From: a candidate division TA06 bacterium SM23_40
GTDB lineage: Bacteria; LJUI01; SM1-40
Reading direction: 5' to 3'
Length of the DNA: 24,414 nucleotides
Assembly (NCBI GenBank): GCA_001303705.1
Contig: LJUI01000021.1
Coordinates: 1 to 24,414, forward strand
The position numbers and the translations under genes were made by a program. This document shows positions 10,105 through 23,766 of the stretch, in pieces; the first letter of the stretch is position 1, and every line of letters starts with the position of its first letter. Under the pieces are notes generated by a model, which saw only the letters and a program-made list of their open reading frames with translations, was not told the DNA's origin and did not search any database.

Positions 10105-11346
10105 ATGGCTCCGGAGCTGAACTACGCTTTGCTGGCCGCCGCGGGCCTTCTGGCCGTTTTCTTTCTGCTGTTGGCGCTCAATGCCAGGACGAGGGTGCGT
10201 GGGGTGGAACAAGAGCTGTTGATGCTCAGCAAGAGGATCGAGCGACAGAAGGGCGAGCATCGCAAAGAAGTGGCAGCGACCCAGCGGAACATCGAGACCC
10301 TTGCGCGGGAGATCGACACGAGGCGTCGGCTGTTCGTCATTCTGCTCGATCTGGCAAAAGAGCTGGGAGCGAGTACCGATCGGGCTGATATCTATGCGCT
10401 ATTGGTCAGGTCGGCTCACCGGCTGGCAGAGGCTCAGGAAGTCGAGCTCTTCCAGACCCGACCGGCGAGGACCGAGCTCTCCCTCGCCGCCCATATCGGC
10501 CTGCCTTCAGGCATCCCGCCCGATGTCGCCATTCCCATCGGAGAGGGATACATCGGGTACACAGCCCAGAAGCGCCTGCCGATGACCATCGCGGATTTTC
10601 GGATGGAGAGCAACCTCGCCCAGCGGGAGATCGAATCTCCCTGGAATCAGCGGTTTCGAACAGACATCTGTATCCCGCTCACGTACCGCGACAGGATCTT
10701 CGGCGTGATCAACGTCGGGGGGCTCGCCGAGCTGAGTGATGATGTCAAGTCGATACTGGTGATGATCGGGAGCCTGGGGGCGATGGCTCTGGAGAATTCC
10801 CGGCTGTTTCACGAGATCCAGGCCGCGAGCGAGACCGATGATCTCACGCGACTGCTCAACAGGCGGAGCGCACTCGACGTGCTGCGTCGGGAGATCGAGC
10901 GATCTCTCCGCTATGACCGAGCGAGCTGCCTGATCATCCTCGATATCGATCATTTCCGTCAGTATAACGAGGTGAACGGCCGTCCGAGTGGTGACGACGT
11001 GCTCCGCCAGTTCGCGGTGTTGCTCAGAGATCAGCTTCGCAACACCGACTACGTCGGGCGGTACGGCGGCGAAGAGTTTATCGTCGTGCTCCCCGAGACG
11101 GAGAAAGAGATCGCGGCTCGCCTGGCCGAGCGAATTCGGCAGGCCGTACAAGATGAACCGTTCTCCGGGGAGTCGAGCGTCCCCGGAGGCTGCTTGACTG
11201 TGAGCATCGGCCTCGCTGCATGCCCCGTGGACGCAGTAGACGTTGAGCGCATGGTGAGCATGGCCGAAAGAGCGCTCTATCAGGCCAAGCACGAAGGGCG
11301 CAATCGGGTCGTGATCGCCTCACGTGCGGAGGCACCGACCACCTGA
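10105..11346 (+). CDS. GAF-GGDEF diguanylate cyclase, membrane-anchored (GGDEF protein 1)
   Basis: The 413-residue protein has one N-terminal membrane helix (about 6-27), a basic and acidic coiled coil (about 30-75), a GAF-like sensor domain (about 80-235) and a GGDEF domain (about 245-405). The active-site signature is GGEEF at residues 321-325, which is compatible with cyclase activity. The inhibitory I-site RxxD (RNTD, 312-315) is intact, five residues before it. The substrate-binding segment reads DIDHFRQYNEVNGRPSGDDVL, where the usual His of GHxxGD is Arg. Predicted reaction: two GTP to c-di-GMP with feedback inhibition, controlled by an unknown GAF ligand or partner. ATG 10105 follows a GGGAGAGG ribosome site. 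It is the first of three consecutive GGDEF genes and begins 12 bp after purC. Confidence 0.92.
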   Translation: MAPELNYALLAAAGLLAVFFLLLALNARTRVRGVEQELLMLSKRIERQKGEHRKEVAATQRNIETLAREIDTRRRLFVILLDLAKELGASTDRADIYALLVRSAHRLAEAQEVELFQTRPARTELSLAAHIGLPSGIPPDVAIPIGEGYIGYTAQKRLPMTIADFRMESNLAQREIESPWNQRFRTDICIPLTYRDRIFGVINVGGLAELSDDVKSILVMIGSLGAMALENSRLFHEIQAASETDDLTRLLNRRSALDVLRREIERSLRYDRASCLIILDIDHFRQYNEVNGRPSGDDVLRQFAVLLRDQLRNTDYVGRYGGEEFIVVLPETEKEIAARLAERIRQAVQDEPFSGESSVPGGCLTVSIGLAACPVDAVDVERMVSMAERALYQAKHEGRNRVVIASRAEAPTT

Positions 11347-11359
11347 GGGGGTGGAGTCT

Positions 11360-12580
11360 GTGACTGTTGAAATGTTGTTGTTGGTGCTGTCGCCCCTGGT
11401 TGTGGCGGTGGGTGCAATTGACTTGATCCGCAGCAGGAGGAAGGCTCGCGAGTTGAGGCGATCTCTCGGCAAGCGGAGAGAGGAGCTTGCTCAGGTGATG
11501 CGTGTCCACGAGGAGAGCATGAGCATCCTCCGCCGTGCTCTCCAGAACCTCGAACAGGAGAGGAGTGACAGTAGGAAGCTCCTCGAGTCGACAGTCAACT
11601 TCATCGGGCGAGTTCTCGAACACCGTGATCCCAGTCGCCGTGCGGCCGGTATCGTCGAGGGGGCGACGAGACTTCTGGAGGCGAAGGAAGTGTCGTTCTA
11701 CGTGCCGACCAGGGACGGACGGGACCTGGTGCTGCGCCATATCTCGGGCCTCGGATACGAGGAGGTCAGCGATGTGAGGGTGCGAGTGGGAGAAGGGCGA
11801 GTGGGAACCGCTGCCGCGCGCGGCACCATAATGCAGGAGAAGGACTTTGAACGGGAGGGTGTCCCGCCCGAGTCCGGTCTGCTTCCCGACGCGCGGTCGT
11901 GTGTTCCGCTCCTGGGCTGGGCCGGGCTGTACGGGGTCGTCGGGGTGGGGAGCACGAGTGTGGGGCGGATGGATGAGCGGCTCACCGTGATCTCGGGGTT
12001 CGGCGGCCTCACCCTGGAGACTGCCGCTCTGCTGCACCGTGCCGAAGAGGAGACTCAGATCGATGCGACGACCCGGCTTGTGAACCGTGCCAACGCACTG
12101 AGGGCTCTCGATCGCGAGATCGACCACGCGCGACGCTATGGCCGAACCCTCTCGGTCTCCCTCTTTGGAATCGACGGATATCCGCAGGTCGAGGGGGAGC
12201 CTGATACTGCACGGGGCGCCGCTCAACTGAGGGCGGTGGGCAAGCTTCTCGCCGAGAGTGCAAGAGACACAGACCTTCCGGCGCGACTTGACGAGGAAAC
12301 GTTCATCGTCCTGCTGCCCGAGAGCGGCCGGTCAGATGCGGTCGAGATGGCCGATCGAATTCGGAAGGAGTTCGAGGAGAGTACCTCGTCCGGCGAGATC
12401 CCGGTGATGTTCGGGCAGGGAACCATGAGCGGTGGGATCGCAACATTCCCGGAAGATGGGGACGATGCAGTAGTTCTCGTGCAGCGTGCTACCGACGCTC
12501 TGGTGAGAGCTCGAAAAGAAGGCGGCAATCGCGTGATCTCTTCCCCGTCACCGGATGAGGCCGGCGGTCAGTCGAGCTGA
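11360..12580 (+). CDS. GAF plus degenerate GGDEF protein (GGDEF protein 2), likely c-di-GMP receptor
   Basis: The product has the same plan as GGDEF protein 1: N-terminal membrane helix (about 5-20), coiled coil (about 25-75), GAF-like domain (about 80-235) and GGDEF fold (about 240-395). The active site is destroyed: GGDEF reads DEETF at 311-315, and the substrate loop reads GIDGYPQVEGEPDTARG. The RxxD I-site (RDTD, 302-305) is kept with the canonical five-residue spacing, so I infer c-di-GMP binding without synthesis. The start is one of GTG 11351, GTG 11360 or ATG 11372. I prefer 11360, which gives 406 residues and lies 8 bases after a GAGGGGG stretch (11345-11351). The gap from protein 1 is 13 bp. 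It probably arose by duplication of gene 1. Confidence 0.85.
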   Translation: MTVEMLLLVLSPLVVAVGAIDLIRSRRKARELRRSLGKRREELAQVMRVHEESMSILRRALQNLEQERSDSRKLLESTVNFIGRVLEHRDPSRRAAGIVEGATRLLEAKEVSFYVPTRDGRDLVLRHISGLGYEEVSDVRVRVGEGRVGTAAARGTIMQEKDFEREGVPPESGLLPDARSCVPLLGWAGLYGVVGVGSTSVGRMDERLTVISGFGGLTLETAALLHRAEEETQIDATTRLVNRANALRALDREIDHARRYGRTLSVSLFGIDGYPQVEGEPDTARGAAQLRAVGKLLAESARDTDLPARLDEETFIVLLPESGRSDAVEMADRIRKEFEESTSSGEIPVMFGQGTMSGGIATFPEDGDDAVVLVQRATDALVRARKEGGNRVISSPSPDEAGGQSS

Positions 12581-12660: not shown

Positions 12661-13650
12661 ATGGACTTTGAGGCCACCCCTGGTCTGCGCAGCAGGCGTC
12701 ACCTTTGGAAGCAGCTTGCCGTCGAAATCGAACGCGCAGCCCGCTATCATCGCCCTCTTTCCGTGACCGTGTATGACGTGGATCATCTGGGAGCCTACAA
12801 TGAGAGGCACAGCAGGGAGGATGGGGATAAGGTGCTCGGGGAGATCGCGACGATACTCATCGCACAGACTCGTGCGGCCGACATTCCTGCGTACTATGGT
12901 GGAGGAACATTCGTCCTCGCGGTTCCGGAGGCCACAAAACATCAGGCATTCGGGCTCGCCGAGCGGGTGAGACGCATGGTCGAGTTCACATTCGCACCCG
13001 GGCGGAGGAGTCGCCACAAAGTGGCGGTGACGACGAGTGCCGGCGTATCGTCCTATCCTGCTGATGGAGAGGACCCGATGGAGCTGGTGAGAGCTGCGAG
13101 AAAGGCGATGAAAGCTGCGAAGAAAGCGGGTCGGAACGTCGTGATGAGCACACCCGAGGTGCCAGAGGTGGCCGTCCCCGTGGCTGCTAAGAGGGCCGCG
13201 GGGCCGAAGGCTGCCGCGAAGCCGAAGAAGGTTGCGAGGCCGAAGAAAGCAGCGAAGCGGGCCAAGCCGAAGCCGGCGGCGAGAGCTAGAAAGAAGGTAG
13301 CCGCCAGGCGGGCAGTGAAGAGGAAGCCGGCGAAGGCAAAGCGGGTGGGCACGAAGAGGGCGGCGAAGCCGAGGAAGGCGGCTGCCAGGCGTGTGAAGAA
13401 GAAGGCGGTGAAGAGGAAGCCGGCACGGGCGAAGAAGGTGACGAAGACGAAGAAGGCGACACGGGCGAAGAAGGCGACACGAGCCAAGAAGGTGACGAAG
13501 ACGAGGAAGGCGACGAAGGCGACGAAAACGAGGAAGACGTCAGTGAAGCGGCCGGCGAAGGGGGCCAGGTCGGCCAGGACGGCGAGGAGGACTGGCAAGA
13601 CGGTGACTAGGAGGGCTGGTCGATCCGCCAGGGGTGGGAAGAGGTCGTGA
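12661..13650 (+). CDS. Degenerate GGDEF domain fused to a histone H1-like Lys/Arg/Ala tail (GGDEF protein 3)
   Basis: This 329-residue protein begins directly with a GGDEF fold (about 5-162), without membrane helix or GAF domain. The signature is GGGTF (80-84) instead of GGDEF, so catalysis is unlikely, but the RxxD I-site (RAAD, 71-74) is kept exactly five residues upstream. Residues 175-329 form a tail of 155 residues with about 71 Lys/Arg (46%) and many Ala, Pro and Thr. It has no acidic or aromatic residue and shows short repeats such as KRKPAKAKR/KRKPARAKK and KKATRAKKATRAKK. Such tails bind DNA or RNA in bacterial H1-like proteins and in AlgP. I infer a cytoplasmic nucleic-acid-binding protein that may respond to c-di-GMP. 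The ATG follows a strong GGAGGTG ribosome site. The frame is uninterrupted through the tail. Confidence 0.88.
   Translation: MDFEATPGLRSRRHLWKQLAVEIERAARYHRPLSVTVYDVDHLGAYNERHSREDGDKVLGEIATILIAQTRAADIPAYYGGGTFVLAVPEATKHQAFGLAERVRRMVEFTFAPGRRSRHKVAVTTSAGVSSYPADGEDPMELVRAARKAMKAAKKAGRNVVMSTPEVPEVAVPVAAKRAAGPKAAAKPKKVARPKKAAKRAKPKPAARARKKVAARRAVKRKPAKAKRVGTKRAAKPRKAAARRVKKKAVKRKPARAKKVTKTKKATRAKKATRAKKVTKTRKATKATKTRKTSVKRPAKGARSARTARRTGKTVTRRAGRSARGGKRS
13183..13647 (+). repeat. Low-complexity, internally repetitive DNA coding for the basic tail
   Basis: The segment is dominated by AAG, GCG, GCC and AGG codons with many imperfect short repeats, for example GCGAAGAAGG and ACGAAGACGA motifs at 13420-13530. 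It is prone to slippage, so tail length may vary between strains. The mirror-strand reading frame gives a Phe/Ala-rich artefact. Confidence 0.8.
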
Positions 13651-13684: not shown

Positions 13685-16264
13685 GTGAAGGTTACGATCG
13701 ATCACATTCTTCCGCGTGTAACGAAACCGATTCGGTATCTGGGCGACGAAATTCACTCCGTACACAAGGATCATACCCCGGATCGGCTCAAGGTGGCGCT
13801 CGCCTATCCTGACGTCTACGAGCTCGGCATGTCGAACCTCGGGCTCCAGATCCTCTATCACATCCTCAATCGGAGAGATGATGTAGTCTGTGAACGGGTC
13901 TTTGCGCCCTGGACAGACATGGAGGACGAGATGCGCCGCGGGGGGCTGCCGCTCTTCGCTCTCGAATCGCGGACGCCGATCCGTGAGTTCGACCTGTTCG
14001 GCATCAGCCTCCAGCACGAGCTCGCCTGCACCAACGTGCTCAACCTCCTCGATCTCGCCGGCATACCGCTTCACTGGCGTGACAGAGCACGTACCGATCC
14101 GATCATAGTGGGAGGTGGTCCGTGCGCATTCAACCCCGAGCCCGTCGCTGACTTCTTCGATTGCTTCGCGATTGGTGAGGGCGAGGAGGTTATCGGAGAG
14201 CTCGTGGACGTGGCGAAGGAGTGGCTGGCTACGGGCGATCCGAGAGCAACACTCCACCGTGAACTCGGCCGCCTTTCCGGGGTATACGTTCCGGCGCTCT
14301 TCGATGGTGCGCCGCCCGGCGCGTCGGCCCGATCATCGGAGCCCCGCGCGCGGGTGAGCAGGCGCATCGTAGAGGATCTGCGCCCTGAGTATGCTCCCCT
14401 GCCTCCTATCGTTCCGTTCTGCGAGATAACCCACGACCGCCTCGGGGTCGAGGTAATGAGGGGGTGCACACGGGGGTGCCGCTTCTGCCTTTCCGGCATT
14501 GGATACCGGCCGGTGCGCGAGCGCCCGCTCGAATCGGTCATCGAGATCGCGCGTCGCGGCCTGAGAGAGAGCGGCTGGGACGAGGTCTCGTTCGTCTCTC
14601 TCTCCAGTAGCGACTACTCCCGTCTCGAGGAGCTCGTGGAGCGACTGCCGCACGAGCTCGGAGAAGAACAAGTCGCCATCTCTCTCCCATCTCTGAGGCC
14701 GGACGCCTTCAGCGAGCGCCTCGCCAGGGGGCTGAGCCAGTTCCGCCGCACCGGCCTCACATTTGCGCCAGAATGCGGCTCGTGGCGGCTCGGTGGAGTG
14801 ATCAACAAACAGGTGGGCGAGGACGCGCTCCTCGACGCGATCGCGCACGCGTACACTGCCGGGTGGAGGCAGATCAAACTGTACTTCATGATCGGCCTCC
14901 CCACCGAGACATCTGACGATCTGCAGGGCATCGTCGATCTCACGCGGCGTGCAGCGAAGGTCGGGCGCAAGACGAAGGGCAGACTGAAAGTATCGATCTC
15001 TCCGTTTGTGGCGAAGGCACACACGCCCTTCCAGTGGACCGCGCAGGAAGGCATAGAGGAGATGAGGGAGAAAGAGCTCTTCCTGAGGCGGGCGCTCAGA
15101 TCGCACAACGTGACGGTCAAATGGCGAAGCCCTGAGATATCGTTTCTCGAGGGTGTGCTTGCGCGGGGCGACCGCCAGTTGGTGCGTGTTATCGAGAGGG
15201 CCTGGAGAATGGGGTGCCGATTCGATAAGTGGACTGAGCATTTCCACTACGATCGCTGGGAGCGAGCGTTCTCCGAGGAGGATATCGATCCCACAGCGTA
15301 TCTGCGAGCCAGGCCACTCGATGAGGTTCTCCCGTGGGATCACATCGATATCGGCGTCGCCCGTGCGTTCCTGACCGAGGAGAAGGCCCGCAGCGAGGCG
15401 GGCGACGTCACCCCTGATTGTCGCGAACAGACGTGTGTGCACTGTGGGCTGCCGTGCGAGGCAGAGGGACGCCCGCCCGCGCTCCTCGGGAGCGCGCGAG
15501 AGTCCGCCTTGCCCGCCGCCGAGGCCGAGGCCCCGGCAGCCACCTACGGCAGGCCCAAGAGGCGAGAGTATCGCCGTCCGCAGCCGGTAGCCACCCGGTT
15601 TCGCACGAGATTCAGGAAGACGCGTTCCGCACGTTTCCTCTCTCATCTCGACCTGATGCGGGCGATCATTCGATCAGTCCGCAGAGCGGGGCTGCCGCTG
15701 GCCTACTCGCAGGGATTCCGCCCGCACCCCAGGATATCGTTCGGTCCCCCGCTCGCGGTGGGAATGAGCGGGCAGTCGGAGTTCTTCGATCTCCGGCTGG
15801 GCAGGGGGTACCCGGGGAACATCGCCGCGGCGCTGGCCAAGTGGATGCCGCCCGGCATCGAGGTCGTCGAGGCCAAACCCATCTTCTCAAAGGCGCGCTC
15901 GCTCAGCGGGCTCATCAGCTCTGCCACGTACCGAGTGGAGGGGATTGATCGGGCGACCCTGGAGCGCATCGAGCCGAGGCTGGAGGAGATGATGGCCTGC
16001 GAGAGGATCGTGGTGAAACGCGTGACAGAGGGAGAAGCATCCGAGATCGACATCCGTCCCTACCTCAGCTCGCTACGTCTGGTCGATGGATCAGCGCTGG
16101 AGATGACGCTGAGATTCACACCCACGGGCACAGCGAGGCCGACTGAGGTCCTTACGGAGGTAATGGCGCGCGGTACCATCGATATCGCAGGTCTCCGCAT
16201 CGAGAGGACCGACTTGTCCGTGGAATGGGATGGGGAGGCGCGATCTCCCATGGACTTCATCTAG
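13685..16264 (+). CDS. Fused radical SAM (TIGR03960-like) and radical SAM-linked DUF2344 (TIGR03936-like) protein
   Basis: The 859-residue protein has an N-terminal region like the B12-binding-domain radical SAM family (KVALAYPDVYELGMSNLGLQ near 38, IIVGGGPCAFNPEPVADFF near 140). A radical SAM core follows, with the CxxxCxxC cluster C261-C265-C268 (MRGCTRGCRFC), and then a Cys-rich end C579, C584, C587, C591 that could bind metal. After a linker (about 593-628) comes a DUF2344 domain (about 630-859) starting at RFRTRFRKTRSARFLSHLDLMR. In many bacteria these are two adjacent genes next to rng. Here they are one protein, supporting a shared, still uncertain function thought to involve RNA or ribosome maturation. 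The start is GTG 13685 after a GGAGAGG ribosome site, 34 bp past the previous gene. Confidence 0.9.
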   Translation: MKVTIDHILPRVTKPIRYLGDEIHSVHKDHTPDRLKVALAYPDVYELGMSNLGLQILYHILNRRDDVVCERVFAPWTDMEDEMRRGGLPLFALESRTPIREFDLFGISLQHELACTNVLNLLDLAGIPLHWRDRARTDPIIVGGGPCAFNPEPVADFFDCFAIGEGEEVIGELVDVAKEWLATGDPRATLHRELGRLSGVYVPALFDGAPPGASARSSEPRARVSRRIVEDLRPEYAPLPPIVPFCEITHDRLGVEVMRGCTRGCRFCLSGIGYRPVRERPLESVIEIARRGLRESGWDEVSFVSLSSSDYSRLEELVERLPHELGEEQVAISLPSLRPDAFSERLARGLSQFRRTGLTFAPECGSWRLGGVINKQVGEDALLDAIAHAYTAGWRQIKLYFMIGLPTETSDDLQGIVDLTRRAAKVGRKTKGRLKVSISPFVAKAHTPFQWTAQEGIEEMREKELFLRRALRSHNVTVKWRSPEISFLEGVLARGDRQLVRVIERAWRMGCRFDKWTEHFHYDRWERAFSEEDIDPTAYLRARPLDEVLPWDHIDIGVARAFLTEEKARSEAGDVTPDCREQTCVHCGLPCEAEGRPPALLGSARESALPAAEAEAPAATYGRPKRREYRRPQPVATRFRTRFRKTRSARFLSHLDLMRAIIRSVRRAGLPLAYSQGFRPHPRISFGPPLAVGMSGQSEFFDLRLGRGYPGNIAAALAKWMPPGIEVVEAKPIFSKARSLSGLISSATYRVEGIDRATLERIEPRLEEMMACERIVVKRVTEGEASEIDIRPYLSSLRLVDGSALEMTLRFTPTGTARPTEVLTEVMARGTIDIAGLRIERTDLSVEWDGEARSPMDFI

Positions 16265-16555: not shown

Positions 16556-18079
16556 GTGCATACATCTATCATCGTCAATGCCGACACCAGCGAGACGAGG
16601 ATTGCCATCCTCGAGGATCAGCGCTTGGTGGAGCTGTACATCGAGAGGGTTGAGCAGAAGCGCATGGTGGGGGACATCTACAAGGGTAGGGTTGTATCGA
16701 TCCTCCCCGGGCTTCGTGCCGCCTTCGTCGACATCGCCACTGAACGCAATGCGTTCCTGCCGCTTGCGGATGTGACTCAAGAGCTCCTCGAACTCGAGGG
16801 TATGGATGACATCGAGATCGAGGAGAAAGGAAGCAGGCGCGCGCCGATTGCTGCGGAACGCCTGAAGGAGGGACAGGAGGTTCTCGTCCAGGTCTCGAAG
16901 GAGACGATGGGAACCAAAGGTCCGCGTGTGACCTCCTACGTCTCGCTGCCGGGACGGTATGTCGTTCTGATGCCCGGTGTCGAACATATAGGGATCTCGC
17001 GACGTATCAGTGACCGCGAGGAACGGGACCGCCTGCGGAACATCGTGGCGAACCTGCGGCCGAAGGGGATGGGTCTCATCGTAAGGACGGCGGCCGAAGG
17101 CCACAAGGCCGCAGACTTTCGTTCAGATGTCCGCTCGCTCGTCCGGCAGTGGAACAAGATAAAGAAAGGTGCGGAGAAGAAGAAGGCTCCTTCCCTGATC
17201 CACAAGGATATCGGGCTGACACTCAAGCTGATCCGCGATCTCTTCACTCCCGAAGTGAACGAGCTGATCATCGACTCGAAGGACGAGTACAAACAGGTCG
17301 TCTCCTATGTCAACGCCGTCTCACGGCACCTCAGACCCAGGGTGCATCTGTACCAGGGCGATATCCCCATCTTCGAGAGCCACGGCGTCGAGGCTCAGAT
17401 CGAGAAGGCCCTGGAGCGCAAAGTCTGGCTGAAGACGGGCGGGTACATCACGGTCGATCAGACCGAGGCGCTCGCGGCCATAGATGTCAATACCGGCCGG
17501 TTCTCCAAGGAGCGCGACCCCGAGAAGATGATCCTGAAGACGAATACGGAGGCGGCGCGCGAGATCGCACGGCAGCTGAGGCTGAGAGATGTGGGAGGGA
17601 TCATCGTCATCGACTTCATCGATATGGTCAGGGAGGAGAACAAGCGGAAGGTGCTGAACGAGCTGAAGACGGCGCTCAAGCGCGATCGGTCGCGCACGAA
17701 GGCACTGCGGGTGAGCGACCTCGGGCTGATAGAGATGACCCGGGAGCGCGCCCGCCCCAGTCTCCTCCACACCTTCAGCGATCCCTGCCCGACCTGTGAC
17801 GGGACCGGCCGGGTACTCTCCAAGCTGACGGTGGCTCTCAAAATCGAACGGTGGCTGCGGCATGCGGGCCCGGAGCTGGTCAAGAAGCGGATTCAGCTCA
17901 GAACTCATCCGACCCTCGCCGACTATCTGAGTATTGAGCGAGTGGAGACGCTCTCGGAAATTGCCCGCCTCCATCAAATTGGGGTTGTGGTAAAGGGCGA
18001 TCCTTCTTATAGTATAGAAGACTTCCGCGTCTTCCTGCTCGACGTGAGCAAGGACATCACGGAGGAGTATGAGGCGTAG
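16556..18079 (+). CDS. rng: Ribonuclease G/E family endoribonuclease
   Basis: The 507-residue length fits RNase G (no long C-terminal degradosome scaffold). Domains: an S1-type RNA-binding domain at about 35-125 (VGDIYKGRVVSILPGLRAAFVDI), the 5'-sensor/RNase H-like core, then the DNase I-like catalytic region. The Mg-binding aspartates are D310 in AAIDVNTGRF and D353 in VIDFIDM. The Zn-link CPTC lies at 411-414, used for dimerisation. Known role: 5'-monophosphate-stimulated cleavage of rRNA precursors and mRNAs in the cytoplasm. The start is GTG 16556 after GGGAGAAGG; HTSIIVNADTSETRIAIL fits the family N terminus. The upstream radical SAM/DUF2344 neighbour is typical of rng. The usual downstream rplU-rpmA genes are absent; a HEAT-repeat gene follows after 105 bp. 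Confidence 0.95.
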   Translation: MHTSIIVNADTSETRIAILEDQRLVELYIERVEQKRMVGDIYKGRVVSILPGLRAAFVDIATERNAFLPLADVTQELLELEGMDDIEIEEKGSRRAPIAAERLKEGQEVLVQVSKETMGTKGPRVTSYVSLPGRYVVLMPGVEHIGISRRISDREERDRLRNIVANLRPKGMGLIVRTAAEGHKAADFRSDVRSLVRQWNKIKKGAEKKKAPSLIHKDIGLTLKLIRDLFTPEVNELIIDSKDEYKQVVSYVNAVSRHLRPRVHLYQGDIPIFESHGVEAQIEKALERKVWLKTGGYITVDQTEALAAIDVNTGRFSKERDPEKMILKTNTEAAREIARQLRLRDVGGIIVIDFIDMVREENKRKVLNELKTALKRDRSRTKALRVSDLGLIEMTRERARPSLLHTFSDPCPTCDGTGRVLSKLTVALKIERWLRHAGPELVKKRIQLRTHPTLADYLSIERVETLSEIARLHQIGVVVKGDPSYSIEDFRVFLLDVSKDITEEYEA

Positions 18080-18184
18080 CTGGCGCTCCGCTCTGTCCGG
18101 ATTCTGCGGCCGGCCGCGCGCCCGCTCGCCCTTGGGCTCTTGTGGGAGGGTGGATTGCCCGCTATCCTTGCAGGGAGCCACCCA

Positions 18185-19969
18185 ATGGCCCAGAACGGAT
18201 CGACATCGGGTACCGATGTTACACTCTCTCCTGGCGACGGCCGCCCGTCGCCGGACGAGCCCCCGCAGACCGACCTGGATGGCCGGCGGCAGGAAACCGG
18301 CGATATCCGTGCCCTTGTCCAGGCGCTGATGAGGGCGTTCTCATCTCTCCTCTCCTATCCCTCGAATAGCCGTGTTCTCGTCAAGCAGAAGGAGGCTCTC
18401 GCGGCTCTCTTCGACCGGCACCTCAGTACGCACGACGACCTCCGGCTGACCCTCTCGGAGGAAGGATTCCACGCCGAGGGGGTATCCCTCCCGTCACATC
18501 AGAGACGCGCTGTCACGCTTCCCTTCCTGCTCTTCACCGGCGGCCTGCGGGAGATCATCTTCCACGTCGGCATCGATGCTGAGGAATTGTGGTCGTTCCT
18601 CGACGCAGTGCGAACGTGCGCCACACTGCCGGAGGATGACAGGGATGTGGAGAGCCTGCTGTGGGAGCGAGAGTTCGCCAATATCGAATATGTCGCTGTC
18701 GAGGAGCTGGAGACCGAGGGGGCGGGCGAGATCGAAGGGTGGTTCCGTGAACTGGAACTCCCCACCCTTGCGGCGAAAGAGAACGTGCCCCTGACGCATC
18801 TGGACGCCTCGGAGCTCGTCTCGTTCAAGGCGAGGTTGGTGCAGAGCGGTGGGGTGGGTCGGGATGCCCTTGACGTGGAGCCGGCCGAGGGGATCTCCGA
18901 GTTCATGGTCTGGAACGACCGTGATCTCGAGCAGATCGAACAGATAACCGACCGGACTCAGCTGCAGAGCACCCCGCAGCAGGCAGTCGATCTGCTGTCT
19001 GATATCCTCGAGCTCGAGGAAGTGGAAGAGAGGTGGACCGACATCATACATCTCATGGATGGGTATTATCGGGAGCTCATCCAGCGGCGTGACTTCCCGA
19101 GCGCGGTCCAGTTGATCGGACGTCTGAGGAAGATGGCGGCAGGCCAGGAAGCCGCCGCGGCCAGGGCCCAGACCGCACTCGAGAGACTACTGGCTCCGGC
19201 GGGAAGGGAGACGATACGGGAGACACTTGCCCAGGGGTTTGTGCCTGATATCGCCGCGCTGGAGCAGTTCCTGAGAACGATCGGGCCGGAAGTGATTCCC
19301 CAGCTCTGTGCTGCCCTCTCTATGAGCGCCGATAATAAGACACGCGAATCTCTGGCGGAGATGGTATTGAAACTGGCCGATGGGAACGCAAACCTCATCA
19401 TTCCCGTAGCAAAGGAATCGCCGCCGCAGGTGATTCTCGAGATCGTTCCCCTTCTGGGCCGCATCCCGACCGCCGATGCCCTGCGGGGCCTCGGTCTGCT
19501 CGCGCGGCATTCCGATTCGAGGGTCCGGTTGGCGGCCGTCGCCGAGCTGGTGAAGCGCGCCGAGCCGGATGCAGCTCGTCACCTCGTTCGTTGTCTCAGT
19601 GACGAGAACCTCGAGGTCCGGCTCAGAGCACTCTCCCGCCTATCTATGCTGAATGATGAGGGAGCGCTCTGGCAGGTCGTGGGCATGGTCGAGCACGCGA
19701 GCTTCTACCGGCGAAACAGATTGGAGCAGATGGCGCTCATCGAGGCGCTCGACCGGTGGAAGTGGGAAGGGGCAGTGGGGGTCCTCACTCAGCTCCTCCT
19801 GCGTCGCAGAGGTCTAGGAGGGCAGGATTATGAGCCCGTTCGGTGGAAGGCGGCGATGGCCCTGCGAAGCATCGGCACTGAGCCGGCGCGGAATGTCCTG
19901 GATCGCGGTGCACGGAGCTGGCGCAAGAGCGTGCGCCGGGCGTGTAGACGGGCTTTACAGGAGACCTAA
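18185..19969 (+). CDS. HEAT-repeat protein with an N-terminal module shared with the next gene
   Basis: The 594-residue protein has no signal peptide or membrane helix. Residues 1-40 are low-complexity and polar. Residues about 41-178 form an alpha/beta-looking module ending in FHVGIDAEELWSFLDAVRT. Residues about 200-330 are acidic and helical (DILELEEVEERWTDIIHLMDGYYREL). From about 330 to the end, helical hairpins resemble HEAT/armadillo repeats, clearest in LARHSDSRVRLAAVAELVKR and LSDENLEVRLRALSRLS. The last 25 residues are very basic (RSWRKSVRRACRRALQ). I chose ATG 18185 (GGGAG 7 bases upstream); the frame is open to GTG 18140. It lies 5 bp before the HD-GYP gene, whose ribosome site is inside its end, so the two are translationally coupled. 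Function unknown; probably a protein-interaction scaffold for the HD-GYP partner. Confidence 0.82.
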   Translation: MAQNGSTSGTDVTLSPGDGRPSPDEPPQTDLDGRRQETGDIRALVQALMRAFSSLLSYPSNSRVLVKQKEALAALFDRHLSTHDDLRLTLSEEGFHAEGVSLPSHQRRAVTLPFLLFTGGLREIIFHVGIDAEELWSFLDAVRTCATLPEDDRDVESLLWEREFANIEYVAVEELETEGAGEIEGWFRELELPTLAAKENVPLTHLDASELVSFKARLVQSGGVGRDALDVEPAEGISEFMVWNDRDLEQIEQITDRTQLQSTPQQAVDLLSDILELEEVEERWTDIIHLMDGYYRELIQRRDFPSAVQLIGRLRKMAAGQEAAAARAQTALERLLAPAGRETIRETLAQGFVPDIAALEQFLRTIGPEVIPQLCAALSMSADNKTRESLAEMVLKLADGNANLIIPVAKESPPQVILEIVPLLGRIPTADALRGLGLLARHSDSRVRLAAVAELVKRAEPDAARHLVRCLSDENLEVRLRALSRLSMLNDEGALWQVVGMVEHASFYRRNRLEQMALIEALDRWKWEGAVGVLTQLLLRRRGLGGQDYEPVRWKAAMALRSIGTEPARNVLDRGARSWRKSVRRACRRALQET

Positions 19970-19974
19970 TACCG

Positions 19975-21525
19975 ATGGAAGAGAAGGACGAGATCCGCTC
20001 ACACGAAGATGAGTCGACAGAGGGCACCGGGAACAGAGCTCCGGGTTCCTCCTCGGCGGGGTTCGATACGGACTGGGAGAAGCGGATGGTGCAGTGGGGG
20101 CGTGACCTTCTGCGCCGGTTCTATGGAGCGAGCAGAGTTGCCCAGATCTACGATCCGTCGAACGTAACGTTCAAAAGACATATGGACTCCTTCTACGGGG
20201 CCATTCAGGAATTCATCGCCCTCGAATCGGACGTTCAGTTCCGCGTCGCATGGCTCAGTCTCTTCCTCAATGGGGTCCGGATAAAGACGGATTTCAGCAG
20301 CTTCGCTGCGTTCAAGTTCCTGGTTGACGAGTTCTGCCGGCGCGGGATCGGTGCGATCACGTTCAAGAGCGGGTTGGATGCAGAGGAACTCACGGCGTTC
20401 CTTCGGCTCTTCAGCCTGGGAGGAAAAGAGGAGAGCGGGGCATACGCTAACTTCGTCGCAGCGCTCCAGAAGAACAACATTTCTCATGTGGTAATCTCCG
20501 AGGCAGGGGAGGGAGGGCGCAGGAAGGTAGAAGATCAGGGGGACCGCGCCGCGGCCCGATCCGCGTTTCTCTTGACCATGGGTCATCTGAAGCGTGTGGT
20601 GGCGCGGATCGAGGGTGGTGAACCGGCTAATATCCGGGGCGCACGACGGGCAGTGGAGTCGGTCGTCGAGTGCGTCGATCGGGATGAGTGCTACATGCTC
20701 GGCCTCACGGTGATCAAGAATTATGTCAACTATCGTCTCAACCACTCAGTGAATGTCTGCATCCTCTCGGTCGCCATGGGTCGGCGCCTCGGGCTCGACA
20801 GAAAGTCGCTCAGAGACCTGGGGATCGCTGCGCTGTTCCATGATATCGGGACCCTCGATGTGCCGGATGAGATATTGAGCAAGCCCGAGACCCTCACGGC
20901 CGAGGAATTCACGGCCGTCACGCGGCACACCCTCAGGGGCGCTGAGATGATAACGCGGCTGAAGGGCGTGTCCCAGGTGCCGATTGCCGCGATGGCGGTC
21001 ACGCTCCAGCATCATCTCCATCTGGATCTGTCGGGGTATCCACGTATCGAGCGAGAGTACGAGGTCTGCCCGTTCGCCAGGATCGTGGCTATCGCCGACT
21101 ACTACGACGCCATGACGAGCGAGCGGCCGTACCGCAGCCGGCCGGTCCGCCCTGACAAGACGATCGCCCACATGCTGAAAGGAGCGGGGAAACAGTTCGA
21201 TCTTCTCCTGCTCAAGGTCTTCGTTCAGATGATGGGAGCATATCCCGTGGGTAGCCTCGTCCTCCTCGATACGGGAGAACTGGCGGTGGTGGTCGCTCCC
21301 AACCCGGAGCCGGAGCTGTGGGCGCGGCCCAGGGTAAGGATCGTTCGCGACGCCGACGGCAACCTCTGTCAGAAGACGATCGACGTCAACCTCGACGAGA
21401 CCGACCCGATTGCCAGTCGTCCCCTGCGGAATATCGTCAAGGCGACCGACCCCGCTGACTATGCCATCGACCTCCCCCGCGTCATGCTCCACGGCATGAT
21501 GGTACAGGAAGTCGCCGCCCGATAG
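19975..21525 (+). CDS. HD-GYP-type phosphodiesterase-like protein with a novel N-terminal module
   Basis: This 516-residue soluble protein has an N-terminal module (about 35-178) resembling that of the HEAT protein upstream, ending in TFKSGLDAEELTAFLRLFSLGG. The HD-GYP domain spans about 245-430: H257 in NHSVNVCILS, H289-D290 in ALFHDIGTLDVPDEIL, HH346-347 in LQHHLHLDLSGYP, and the late metal Asp in VAIADYYDAMTSERPYR. Canonical domains read HDIGK and HHExxDGxGYP; here the Lys is Thr, the Glu is Leu and the Gly after Asp is Leu. Metal ligands look intact but activity may be altered. Known role of the family: hydrolysis of c-di-GMP (or cGAMP) to GMP. A further C-terminal domain (about 420-516) is unassigned. 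Ribosome site AGGAG (19959-19963) lies in the preceding gene. Confidence 0.9.
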   Translation: MEEKDEIRSHEDESTEGTGNRAPGSSSAGFDTDWEKRMVQWGRDLLRRFYGASRVAQIYDPSNVTFKRHMDSFYGAIQEFIALESDVQFRVAWLSLFLNGVRIKTDFSSFAAFKFLVDEFCRRGIGAITFKSGLDAEELTAFLRLFSLGGKEESGAYANFVAALQKNNISHVVISEAGEGGRRKVEDQGDRAAARSAFLLTMGHLKRVVARIEGGEPANIRGARRAVESVVECVDRDECYMLGLTVIKNYVNYRLNHSVNVCILSVAMGRRLGLDRKSLRDLGIAALFHDIGTLDVPDEILSKPETLTAEEFTAVTRHTLRGAEMITRLKGVSQVPIAAMAVTLQHHLHLDLSGYPRIEREYEVCPFARIVAIADYYDAMTSERPYRSRPVRPDKTIAHMLKGAGKQFDLLLLKVFVQMMGAYPVGSLVLLDTGELAVVVAPNPEPELWARPRVRIVRDADGNLCQKTIDVNLDETDPIASRPLRNIVKATDPADYAIDLPRVMLHGMMVQEVAAR

Positions 21526-22295: not shown

Positions 22296-22455
22296 GTAGT
22301 GTGTACAGGCCTCCCGGTCTCTTCGATAGTGTCTGCAGGTCCATGCATGCTGGGGGTAGTGCGTGCGGGTACGCCCATGCCGAGGGTAGTGTGTATGGGC
22401 TGACCTATGCCGCGGGCAGTGTATGCTCGTTCCCGGATCCTGAGGTAGTGTGCGG
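22296..22455. repeat. Degenerate 30-bp tandem array running into the start of the reductase gene
   Basis: Units begin with a GTAGTGTGT-like core at 22296, 22326, 22356, 22386 and 22416 (exactly 30 bp apart) and 22445 (29 bp). Typical cores: GTAGTGTGTAC, ATAGTGTCTGC, GTAGTGCGTGC, GTAGTGTGTAT. The second half of each unit is less conserved but often CCATGCCG-like. The last core overlaps the ribosome site of the next gene. Confidence 0.85.
22442..22446 (+). promoter_or_regulatory. Ribosome-binding site inside the last 30-bp repeat unit
   Basis: GAGGT at 22442-22446 lies 9 bases before ATG 22456 and overlaps the final repeat core (22445). It favours ATG 22456 over the GTG at 22450, which has no proper spacing. 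Anything that binds the repeat in RNA or DNA would cover this site. Confidence 0.55.
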
Positions 22456-23766
22456 ATGAGAAGAAGAATCGGAATACGCCGTGAGGACAAGAATCCGTGG
22501 GAGCGCCGCGTCCCCCTCACTCCTGAGGACATTCGGGAGCTGAGCGAACGGCACCAGCTCGAATTCTGGCTGCAGCCCTCCGAGATACGTATCATCCCCG
22601 ATCAGGCGTACGTCGAGGTAGGGGCGAAGATCGAAGAAGATCTCTCTTCATGCCCGGTCGTCTTCGCGGTGAAAGAGATCCCGGTCGGTCTTTTCCGTGC
22701 GGGCTCCACCTACGTCTTCTTCGCCCACGTCATCAAGGGGCAAAAGTACAATATGGGGATGCTCAGGAAGATGATGGAGCTCGGGTGCCAGCTCATCGAG
22801 TATGAGAAGGTGGCCGACGACGGGGGGCGACGCCTCATCTTTTTCGGCAAGCACGCCGGTCTGGCGGGCATGATCGATGCGCTCTGGGCGCTCGGACAGA
22901 GGCTGAACTGGGAGGGCATCCCCACGCCGCTCGCCGACATCAAACATGCGTACCAGTACGAGAGCCTGGAGCAGGCAAAGGCGGAGATCACCCGGGTGGG
23001 CAAAAAGATCTCCTCACAGGGCCTACCAGAGTCGCTCGCGCCTCTGGTCGTCGGGATTGCGGGATACGGACACGTATCACAGGGAGCACAGGAGATACTC
23101 AGTCTCCTTCCTGCACAGGAGATCGCTCCCGAGAAGGTGGGCAAGCTTGCAAGAGCATCCTCTGCCTCGAACAGGGTCATCTACAAGACTGTCTTCCGAG
23201 AAGAGCATATGGTGGAGCCGATCGCGCCAGAGGCGATGTTCGAACTTCAAGATTACTATGACCACCCGGAGAAGTATCGGACACAGTTCCCGGCGTACGT
23301 GCCTCACCTTACCGTGCTCATGAACTGCATCTATTGGGAAGAACGGTATCCCCGGCTCGTCACCAAGCAGTTCCTGAAAGAACTGTACAGAGGCTCATCT
23401 CGCCCGCGCCTTCGGGTCATAGGAGACATAAGCTGCGACATTGAGGGCGCGATCGAGTGCACAGTCAAATGGACTAACCCGGAGAAGCCCATCTTCGTCT
23501 ACAACCCGTTCGATGGCACGACCCGCGACGGACATGAGGGGACGGGGCCGGTCGTGCTGGCAGTAGACAACCTGCCGTGTGAGATACCCCGCGAATCGTC
23601 CATCTACTTCAGTAACATATTGAAGGAATTCGTGCCGGCGATCGCGGCCGCGGACCCTTCCGTTCACTTCAGCGATTACCGGCTCCCTGCCGAGATAAAG
23701 CGCGCCGTCATCGTATACAAGGGAGAGCTGACGCCGGACTATCGGTATATCGAGCGGTACCTGTGA
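22456..23766 (+). CDS. Lysine-ketoglutarate reductase-like protein (N-terminal half of LKR/SDH type; AlaDH/PNT-like fold)
   Basis: The 436-residue protein opens with IGIRREDKNPWERRVPLTPEDI, the start expected of lysine-2-oxoglutarate reductase domains in bifunctional LKR/SDH enzymes and of the related alanine dehydrogenase/transhydrogenase N-terminal domains. Further features: FFAHVIKGQKYNMGMLRKMM near residues 87-106, LIFFGKHAGLAGMIDALWALG near 130, a Rossmann-like VVGIAGYGHVSQGAQEIL near 198, and a late RVIGDISCDIEGAIECT segment near 320. It would join lysine and 2-oxoglutarate into saccharopine with NADPH, or act on a related amino acid. The next gene start (24386) looks like the saccharopine dehydrogenase partner, so the eukaryotic-style fusion is split here. 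It is flanked on both sides by tandem repeats. ATG 22456 is preferred. Confidence 0.85.
   Translation: MRRRIGIRREDKNPWERRVPLTPEDIRELSERHQLEFWLQPSEIRIIPDQAYVEVGAKIEEDLSSCPVVFAVKEIPVGLFRAGSTYVFFAHVIKGQKYNMGMLRKMMELGCQLIEYEKVADDGGRRLIFFGKHAGLAGMIDALWALGQRLNWEGIPTPLADIKHAYQYESLEQAKAEITRVGKKISSQGLPESLAPLVVGIAGYGHVSQGAQEILSLLPAQEIAPEKVGKLARASSASNRVIYKTVFREEHMVEPIAPEAMFELQDYYDHPEKYRTQFPAYVPHLTVLMNCIYWEERYPRLVTKQFLKELYRGSSRPRLRVIGDISCDIEGAIECTVKWTNPEKPIFVYNPFDGTTRDGHEGTGPVVLAVDNLPCEIPRESSIYFSNILKEFVPAIAAADPSVHFSDYRLPAEIKRAVIVYKGELTPDYRYIERYL

What the first reader, a model, noticed from the sequence alone, without database searches (positions are those of the whole stretch)
12661..13650. Catalytically dead GGDEF domain fused to a histone H1-like basic tail
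The N-terminal GGDEF fold has GGGTF in place of GGDEF but keeps the RxxD c-di-GMP site at the canonical five-residue distance. The C-terminal 155 residues are about 46% Lys/Arg with no acidic or aromatic residues, like H1-type nucleic-acid-binding tails. I do not recall this domain pairing being described. It suggests a second-messenger-responsive nucleoid or RNA-binding protein, linking c-di-GMP directly to chromosome compaction or transcription.
Basis: partly seen in the sequence, partly recalled or inferred. Interest (0 to 1): 0.8.

Follow-up and report, generated by a model that had tools for sequence, protein, structure and literature searches.

The report
Dead c-di-GMP enzyme with histone-like tail
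A bacterium from a poorly sampled lineage carries, next to a working-looking maker of the signal molecule c-di-GMP, a broken copy of that enzyme that keeps the signal-binding site and has gained a long DNA/RNA-sticky tail; it is probably a signal-controlled nucleic-acid binder, but no relative or experiment yet confirms this.

Summary
ORF 12661-13650 (+) encodes 329 aa: a Pfam GGDEF domain (residues 8-159, E 1e-27) followed in frame by a 156-residue tail with 45.5% Lys/Arg and no D, E, F, W, Y or H. The active-site acids are gone (GGGTF; PleD E370 and E371 become G and T). All four c-di-GMP I-site positions are kept (R25, R71, D74, R102), as are the GTP-holding residues. The tail is not a composition artefact: dinucleotide shuffles never lack acidic codons. 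AlphaFold2 gives a folded GGDEF domain and a disordered tail.

It is the third of three tandem GGDEF genes: an active-looking membrane GAF-GGEEF gene, its degenerate tandem copy (DEETF, RxxD kept), and this one. RNase E/G lies about 3 kb downstream and an HD-GYP protein about 6 kb downstream.

No such fusion was found in the sampled genomes or in open-access papers. No phylum mate was held, so conservation of the tail could not be tested. Likeliest function: an I-site c-di-GMP receptor that binds nucleic acid through its tail. c-di-GMP-responsive nucleoid proteins are already known (CdbA, H-NS, Lsr2); the new part is this pairing of modules.

The parts
12661..13650 (+). g3: degenerate GGDEF domain with K/R/A-rich tail, 329 aa
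   Evidence: GGAGG ribosome-binding site about 10 nt upstream
12682..13137 (+). GGDEF domain of g3 (residues 8-159)
   Evidence: Pfam E 1e-27, nucleotide range; AF2 block means mostly pLDDT 86-95; Foldseek hits DosC, WspR, PleD, GcbC with E down to 7.6e-15
12871..12882 (+). I-site RAAD (R71..D74); R25 and R102 complete the site
   Evidence: PleD alignment R313/R359/D362/R390, roles from PMC7288161
12898..12912 (+). GGGTF in place of GG(D/E)EF (residues 80-84)
   Evidence: PleD E370 and E371 become G82 and T83
13180..13647 (+). Basic disordered tail, 156 aa, 71 K/R, no acidic, aromatic or His residue
   Evidence: pLDDT about 42-51
10105..11346 (+). g1: hydrophobic N-terminal segment, GAF, intact GGEEF with I-site RNTD; probable active diguanylate cyclase
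11324..12580 (+). g2: hydrophobic N-terminal segment, GAF, degenerate GGDEF (DEETF) keeping RDTD and R345; tandem copy of g1 (32% over 358 aa)
13685..16264 (+). Radical SAM protein with DUF2344; starts 34 nt after g3
   Evidence: neighbour in the apparent operon
16556..18079 (+). RNase E/G family protein
   Evidence: PF10150 E 1.7e-106; possible partner in the RNA rival
19975..21525 (+). HD-domain protein of HD-GYP type (candidate c-di-GMP phosphodiesterase)
   Evidence: PF13487 E 8.6e-26; HD and GYP motifs read from the translation

Best explanation
g3 is a pseudo-diguanylate cyclase that works as a c-di-GMP receptor attached to nucleic acid. Steps shown here: the catalytic acids are lost, the full I-site residue set is present, and the tail is real, basic and predicted disordered. 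Steps inferred: the tail binds DNA and/or RNA without sequence preference, as the AlgP and PhaF tails are thought to do. c-di-GMP, made by the neighbouring g1 and perhaps removed by the downstream HD-GYP protein, binds the I-site as a dimer and cross-links two GGDEF domains (g3 with g3, or g3 with g1 or g2). That changes how many tails act together and so tunes bridging or compaction of DNA, or occupancy of RNA. Because the guanine- and phosphate-binding residues remain, the dead active site may hold GTP or (p)ppGpp as a second input.
For: The full I-site is conserved while both catalytic acids are lost (roles). g2 has also lost its active site yet keeps RxxD and the R390 equivalent, so I-site retention despite active-site loss occurs twice in one cluster. 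The active-looking g1 lies in the same apparent operon. Tail composition and predicted disorder match nucleic-acid-binding tails (AlgP, PMC9239181). Charge appears to be kept by selection: among codons one transition away from Lys AAG (40 copies), Arg AGG occurs 18 times and Glu GAG never, and shuffles always contain acidic codons. PopA is a precedent for a dead GGDEF domain acting as an I-site receptor (PMC12564702).
Against: No binding data exist. No homologue with the tail was found, so its conservation is untested. The K/R-rich tail could bind any polyanion. I-site residues can persist simply by descent. The Arg codons of the tail are unlike those of neighbouring genes (AGG 18 of 29 against 73 of 477), so repeat expansion of the DNA may have shaped it.
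Confidence: 0.48

Rival explanations
1. RNA-side role: g3 is an RNA-binding accessory of the operon's RNase E/G or of RNA turnover, comparable in idea to E. coli CsrD, a degenerate GGDEF/EAL protein needed for RNase E to cleave CsrB/C. c-di-GMP may or may not be sensed.
For: The RNase E/G gene is two genes downstream, same strand; basic tails bind RNA as well as DNA; CsrD precedent (PMC5876332).
Against: The rSAM-rng pair occurs in other genomes without GGDEF genes directly beside it, so proximity may be incidental. CsrD has degenerate GGDEF and EAL domains and is reported not to respond to c-di-GMP, unlike the intact I-site here.
Confidence: 0.15
2. Local feedback partner: g3 (and g2) pair with g1 through I-site cross-linking and damp its cyclase activity; the tail only anchors the complex to nucleic acid or acidic membrane lipids.
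For: I-site cross-linking joins opposite GGDEF domains (PMC7288161); R25, the PleD R313 equivalent that serves the neighbouring domain, is kept; g1, g2 and g3 are adjacent.
Against: Does not explain why a 156-residue tail was acquired; heterodimers were not modelled.
Confidence: 0.15
3. Plain polyanion-binding or nucleoid/granule-tethering protein whose GGDEF domain is just a scaffold or binds GTP/(p)ppGpp; c-di-GMP is irrelevant.
For: The residues that hold GTP (D39, N47, D56, K154, R158) are kept; PleD structures with (p)ppGpp exist (9g85, 9g86); AlgP and PhaF use such tails for granules (PMC9239181).
Against: The full I-site is kept; no PPK1-type polyphosphate kinase was found in this about 90%-complete genome, which weakens a polyphosphate role (PPK2 not tested).
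Confidence: 0.15
4. The tail is a recent, slightly or non-adaptive expansion of AAG/GCG/AGG repeats on a decaying GGDEF duplicate.
For: Tandem repeats in the tail (54 bp x 2.1, 84%); unusual AGG share; no relative with a tail found.
Against: Zero acidic codons where shuffles average 22; GAG 0 against AGG 18; the GGDEF domain retains I-site and substrate residues and is predicted to fold; clean ribosome-binding site.
Confidence: 0.07

Closest known systems
PopA (Caulobacter), degenerate GGDEF c-di-GMP receptor
   Same: Inactive A-site with c-di-GMP binding at the I-site RxxD (PMC12564702)
   Different: PopA is a response regulator; no basic tail is described; it directs CtrA to degradation at the cell pole
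CdbA (Myxococcus xanthus)
   Same: c-di-GMP receptor acting as a nucleoid-associated protein (PMC7156744): same proposed function
   Different: Ribbon-helix-helix fold in which DNA and c-di-GMP binding appear mutually exclusive; not a GGDEF protein, no H1-like tail
H-NS (Salmonella) and Lsr2 (mycobacteria) as c-di-GMP targets
   Same: c-di-GMP tunes nucleoid proteins (PMC10657408; PMC10808224)
   Different: Unrelated folds, no GGDEF I-site
AlgP / PhaF H1-like tails
   Same: Folded or helical N-part plus about 150-aa K/A-rich disordered tail that binds DNA and is thought to tether granules (PMC9239181)
   Different: KPAA repeats; N-parts are not GGDEF. Here K/R/A/T-rich, 19% Arg
CsrD
   Same: Degenerate GGDEF protein acting with RNase E (PMC5876332)
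   Different: GGDEF and EAL, membrane-bound, reported not to respond to c-di-GMP

Membership tests
GGDEF domain (PF00990) | Profile match and fold | tested here: met
   E 1e-27, 97 bits against cut-off 23.8; Foldseek E down to 7.6e-15 to DosC, PleD, WspR
Active diguanylate cyclase | GG(D/E)EF acids | tested here: not met
   GGGTF; E370 to G82, E371 to T83
Active diguanylate cyclase | Guanine-, Mg- and phosphate-binding residues (D327, N335, D344, K442, R446) | tested here: met
   D39, N47, D56, K154, R158
I-site c-di-GMP receptor (PopA type) | RxxD at the right spacing plus R390 and R313 equivalents | tested here: met
   R71, D74, R102, R25 (roles)
I-site c-di-GMP receptor (PopA type) | Measured c-di-GMP binding | not testable with these tools
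   Needs ITC or DRaCALA
H1-like / AlgP-like basic tail protein | Long Lys/Ala-rich region without acidic or aromatic residues, disordered | tested here: met
H1-like / AlgP-like basic tail protein | Match to a family model or sequence homology of the tail | tested here: not met
   No Pfam or NCBIfam match for the tail; no convincing match in 385 other genomes, only two at E about 8e-4 with stops inside
H1-like / AlgP-like basic tail protein | Nucleic-acid binding | not testable with these tools
   Needs gel shift or ChIP/CLIP

The most novel reading that the evidence does not exclude
A new class of second-messenger effector: a dead GGDEF domain whose intact I-site senses c-di-GMP, fused to a histone H1-like tail and encoded beside its own cyclase, so that c-di-GMP (possibly with GTP/ppGpp) directly sets how strongly DNA or RNA is bridged.
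Probability: 0.35. Interest if true: 0.65.

Novelty: new variant of a known kind. Interest (0 to 1): 0.48.

Why it matters
The c-di-GMP-controlled nucleoid proteins I found described (CdbA, H-NS, Lsr2) have folds unrelated to GGDEF. If this protein works as proposed, it shows that evolution can build such a link from two common modules, a dead cyclase and a basic tail, and suggests searching for similar tail fusions among the very many degenerate GGDEF proteins.

Tried and rejected
Frameshift or chimera at about 13180: rejected, since frame 0 is open throughout, the other + frames hold stops, and the tail ends 34 nt before the next gene. Real gene on the opposite strand (13053-13598): no Pfam match better than E 0.14 and no NCBIfam match. 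Conserved neighbourhood: the radical SAM gene was used to fetch 80 loci and 30 more including the window's own. Only a few of the 80 longer loci hold a GGDEF gene, none as a tandem cluster directly before the rSAM gene; the loci carry only about 1.5 kb on each side. Similar tail elsewhere in the genome: none found, and its two HU proteins are tailless by length (99 and 95 aa open frames); but the search corrects for biased composition and is weak for such tails. Tail fusions elsewhere: P0001 against 59 genomes (up to 37 candidates each), 386 genomes (5 candidates each), 1 and 8 genomes of other phyla and plasmids (low-complexity filter on): none. The basic charge after the GGDEF domain in about 60 fetched loci is at most +8 per 30 residues against +17 here. 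Papers on GGDEF with H1-like or lysine-rich tails: none. Polyphosphate idea: no PPK1 found.

Full report
Observation. The ORF at 12661-13650 on the + strand is exactly as described. It encodes 329 residues, has a good ribosome-binding site, and its stop-to-stop frame is only two codons longer. Residues 8-159 match PF00990 with E 1e-27. Residues 174-329 are 45.5% Lys/Arg with no acidic, aromatic or histidine residue. Dinucleotide-preserving shuffles of the tail DNA never come close: acidic codons average 22 with a minimum of 10 (observed 0), and K/R averages 46 with a maximum of 64 (observed 71). Within the tail, Lys AAG occurs 40 times and its one-transition neighbour Arg AGG 18 times, but the equally close Glu GAG never, which suggests selection on charge. 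Read from the other strand the same absence would avoid Ser codons, so this test alone does not settle the strand. The reading frame of the GGDEF domain, the ribosome-binding site, the 34-nt spacing to the next gene and the lack of a convincing family match for the antisense frame do favour the + strand. The tail contains imperfect repeats and uses AGG for Arg far more than neighbouring genes, so repeat expansion probably contributed to its origin.

GGDEF domain. Aligned to PleD and read with the residue roles given in PMC7288161, the domain keeps the Mg-site Asp (D39), the guanine-binding Asn and Asp (N47, D56) and the phosphate-binding Lys and Arg (K154, R158). It has lost E370 and E371 (G82, T83). 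All four I-site positions are kept: R71 and D74 (RxxD), R102 (R390) and R25 (R313, which serves the partner domain). The domain should therefore be catalytically dead but able to bind c-di-GMP, and possibly GTP-like ligands. AlphaFold2 from a seven-row alignment gives a confident GGDEF fold and a tail with pLDDT about 42-51 and no predicted secondary structure. Foldseek retrieves DosC, WspR, PleD and GcbC.

Surroundings. Three GGDEF genes lie in a row after purC. g1 (10105-11346) has a hydrophobic N-terminal segment (read from the translation), a GAF domain and an intact GGEEF with I-site. g2 (11324-12580) is a tandem relative of g1 (32% over 358 aa) with DEETF and most active-site residues lost, but RxxD and the R390 equivalent kept. 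g3 has neither the membrane segment nor the GAF domain. A radical SAM-DUF2344 gene starts 34 nt later, followed by RNase E/G, a HEAT-repeat protein and an HD-GYP-type protein. The genome holds nine GGDEF matches, one PilZ protein, two HU proteins and no detected PPK1; it is 189 contigs at about 90% completeness, so absences are tentative.

Relatives. No genome of the same phylum is held, and a scan of GTDB contigs with the neighbouring radical SAM protein gave only distant hits. No GGDEF protein with a comparable tail appeared in the sampled genomes or on plasmids. These searches are weak for low-complexity tails and scored only a few GGDEF proteins per genome in the larger sample, so rarity is suggested, not proven.

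Mechanism. The most economical reading is an I-site c-di-GMP receptor that holds nucleic acid through its tail, with c-di-GMP-driven cross-linking of GGDEF domains altering the number of tails acting together. PopA is the precedent for the receptor half, AlgP and PhaF for the tail, and CdbA, H-NS and Lsr2 for c-di-GMP control of nucleoid proteins. The target could equally be RNA: RNase E/G is encoded nearby, and CsrD shows that a degenerate GGDEF protein can serve RNase E, although CsrD is reported not to respond to c-di-GMP. A third possibility is local feedback on g1. Binding, coupling and target are all inferred.

Verdict. A real and well-described feature, an apparently unreported combination of two known modules, in a lineage without close relatives in hand. 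New variant of a known kind; moderate interest until homologues or binding data exist.

Noticed in passing
window 11324-12580: Second degenerate GAF-GGDEF gene (DEETF) that keeps RxxD and the R390 equivalent; a tandem relative of the active-looking g1, overlapping its end by 23 nt.
   Followed up: partly
window 19975-21525 and 18140-19969: HD-GYP-type protein directly after a HEAT-repeat protein; their N-terminal regions show weak similarity (22% over 140 aa, E 0.005), perhaps a shared uncharacterised domain.
   Followed up: partly
window 13053-13598, - strand: Long antisense ORF (181 aa, F/L/A/V-rich) opposite the tail; probably the mirror of the K/R/A-rich frame.
   Followed up: yes
window 22450-23766: Alanine dehydrogenase/PNT-like protein (438 aa; PF05222, PF01262); possibly saccharopine-pathway-like.
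   Followed up: no
whole genome G000: The genome is alone in its phylum in the held collection; the best radical SAM homologues found are only about 41-50% identical.
   Followed up: partly
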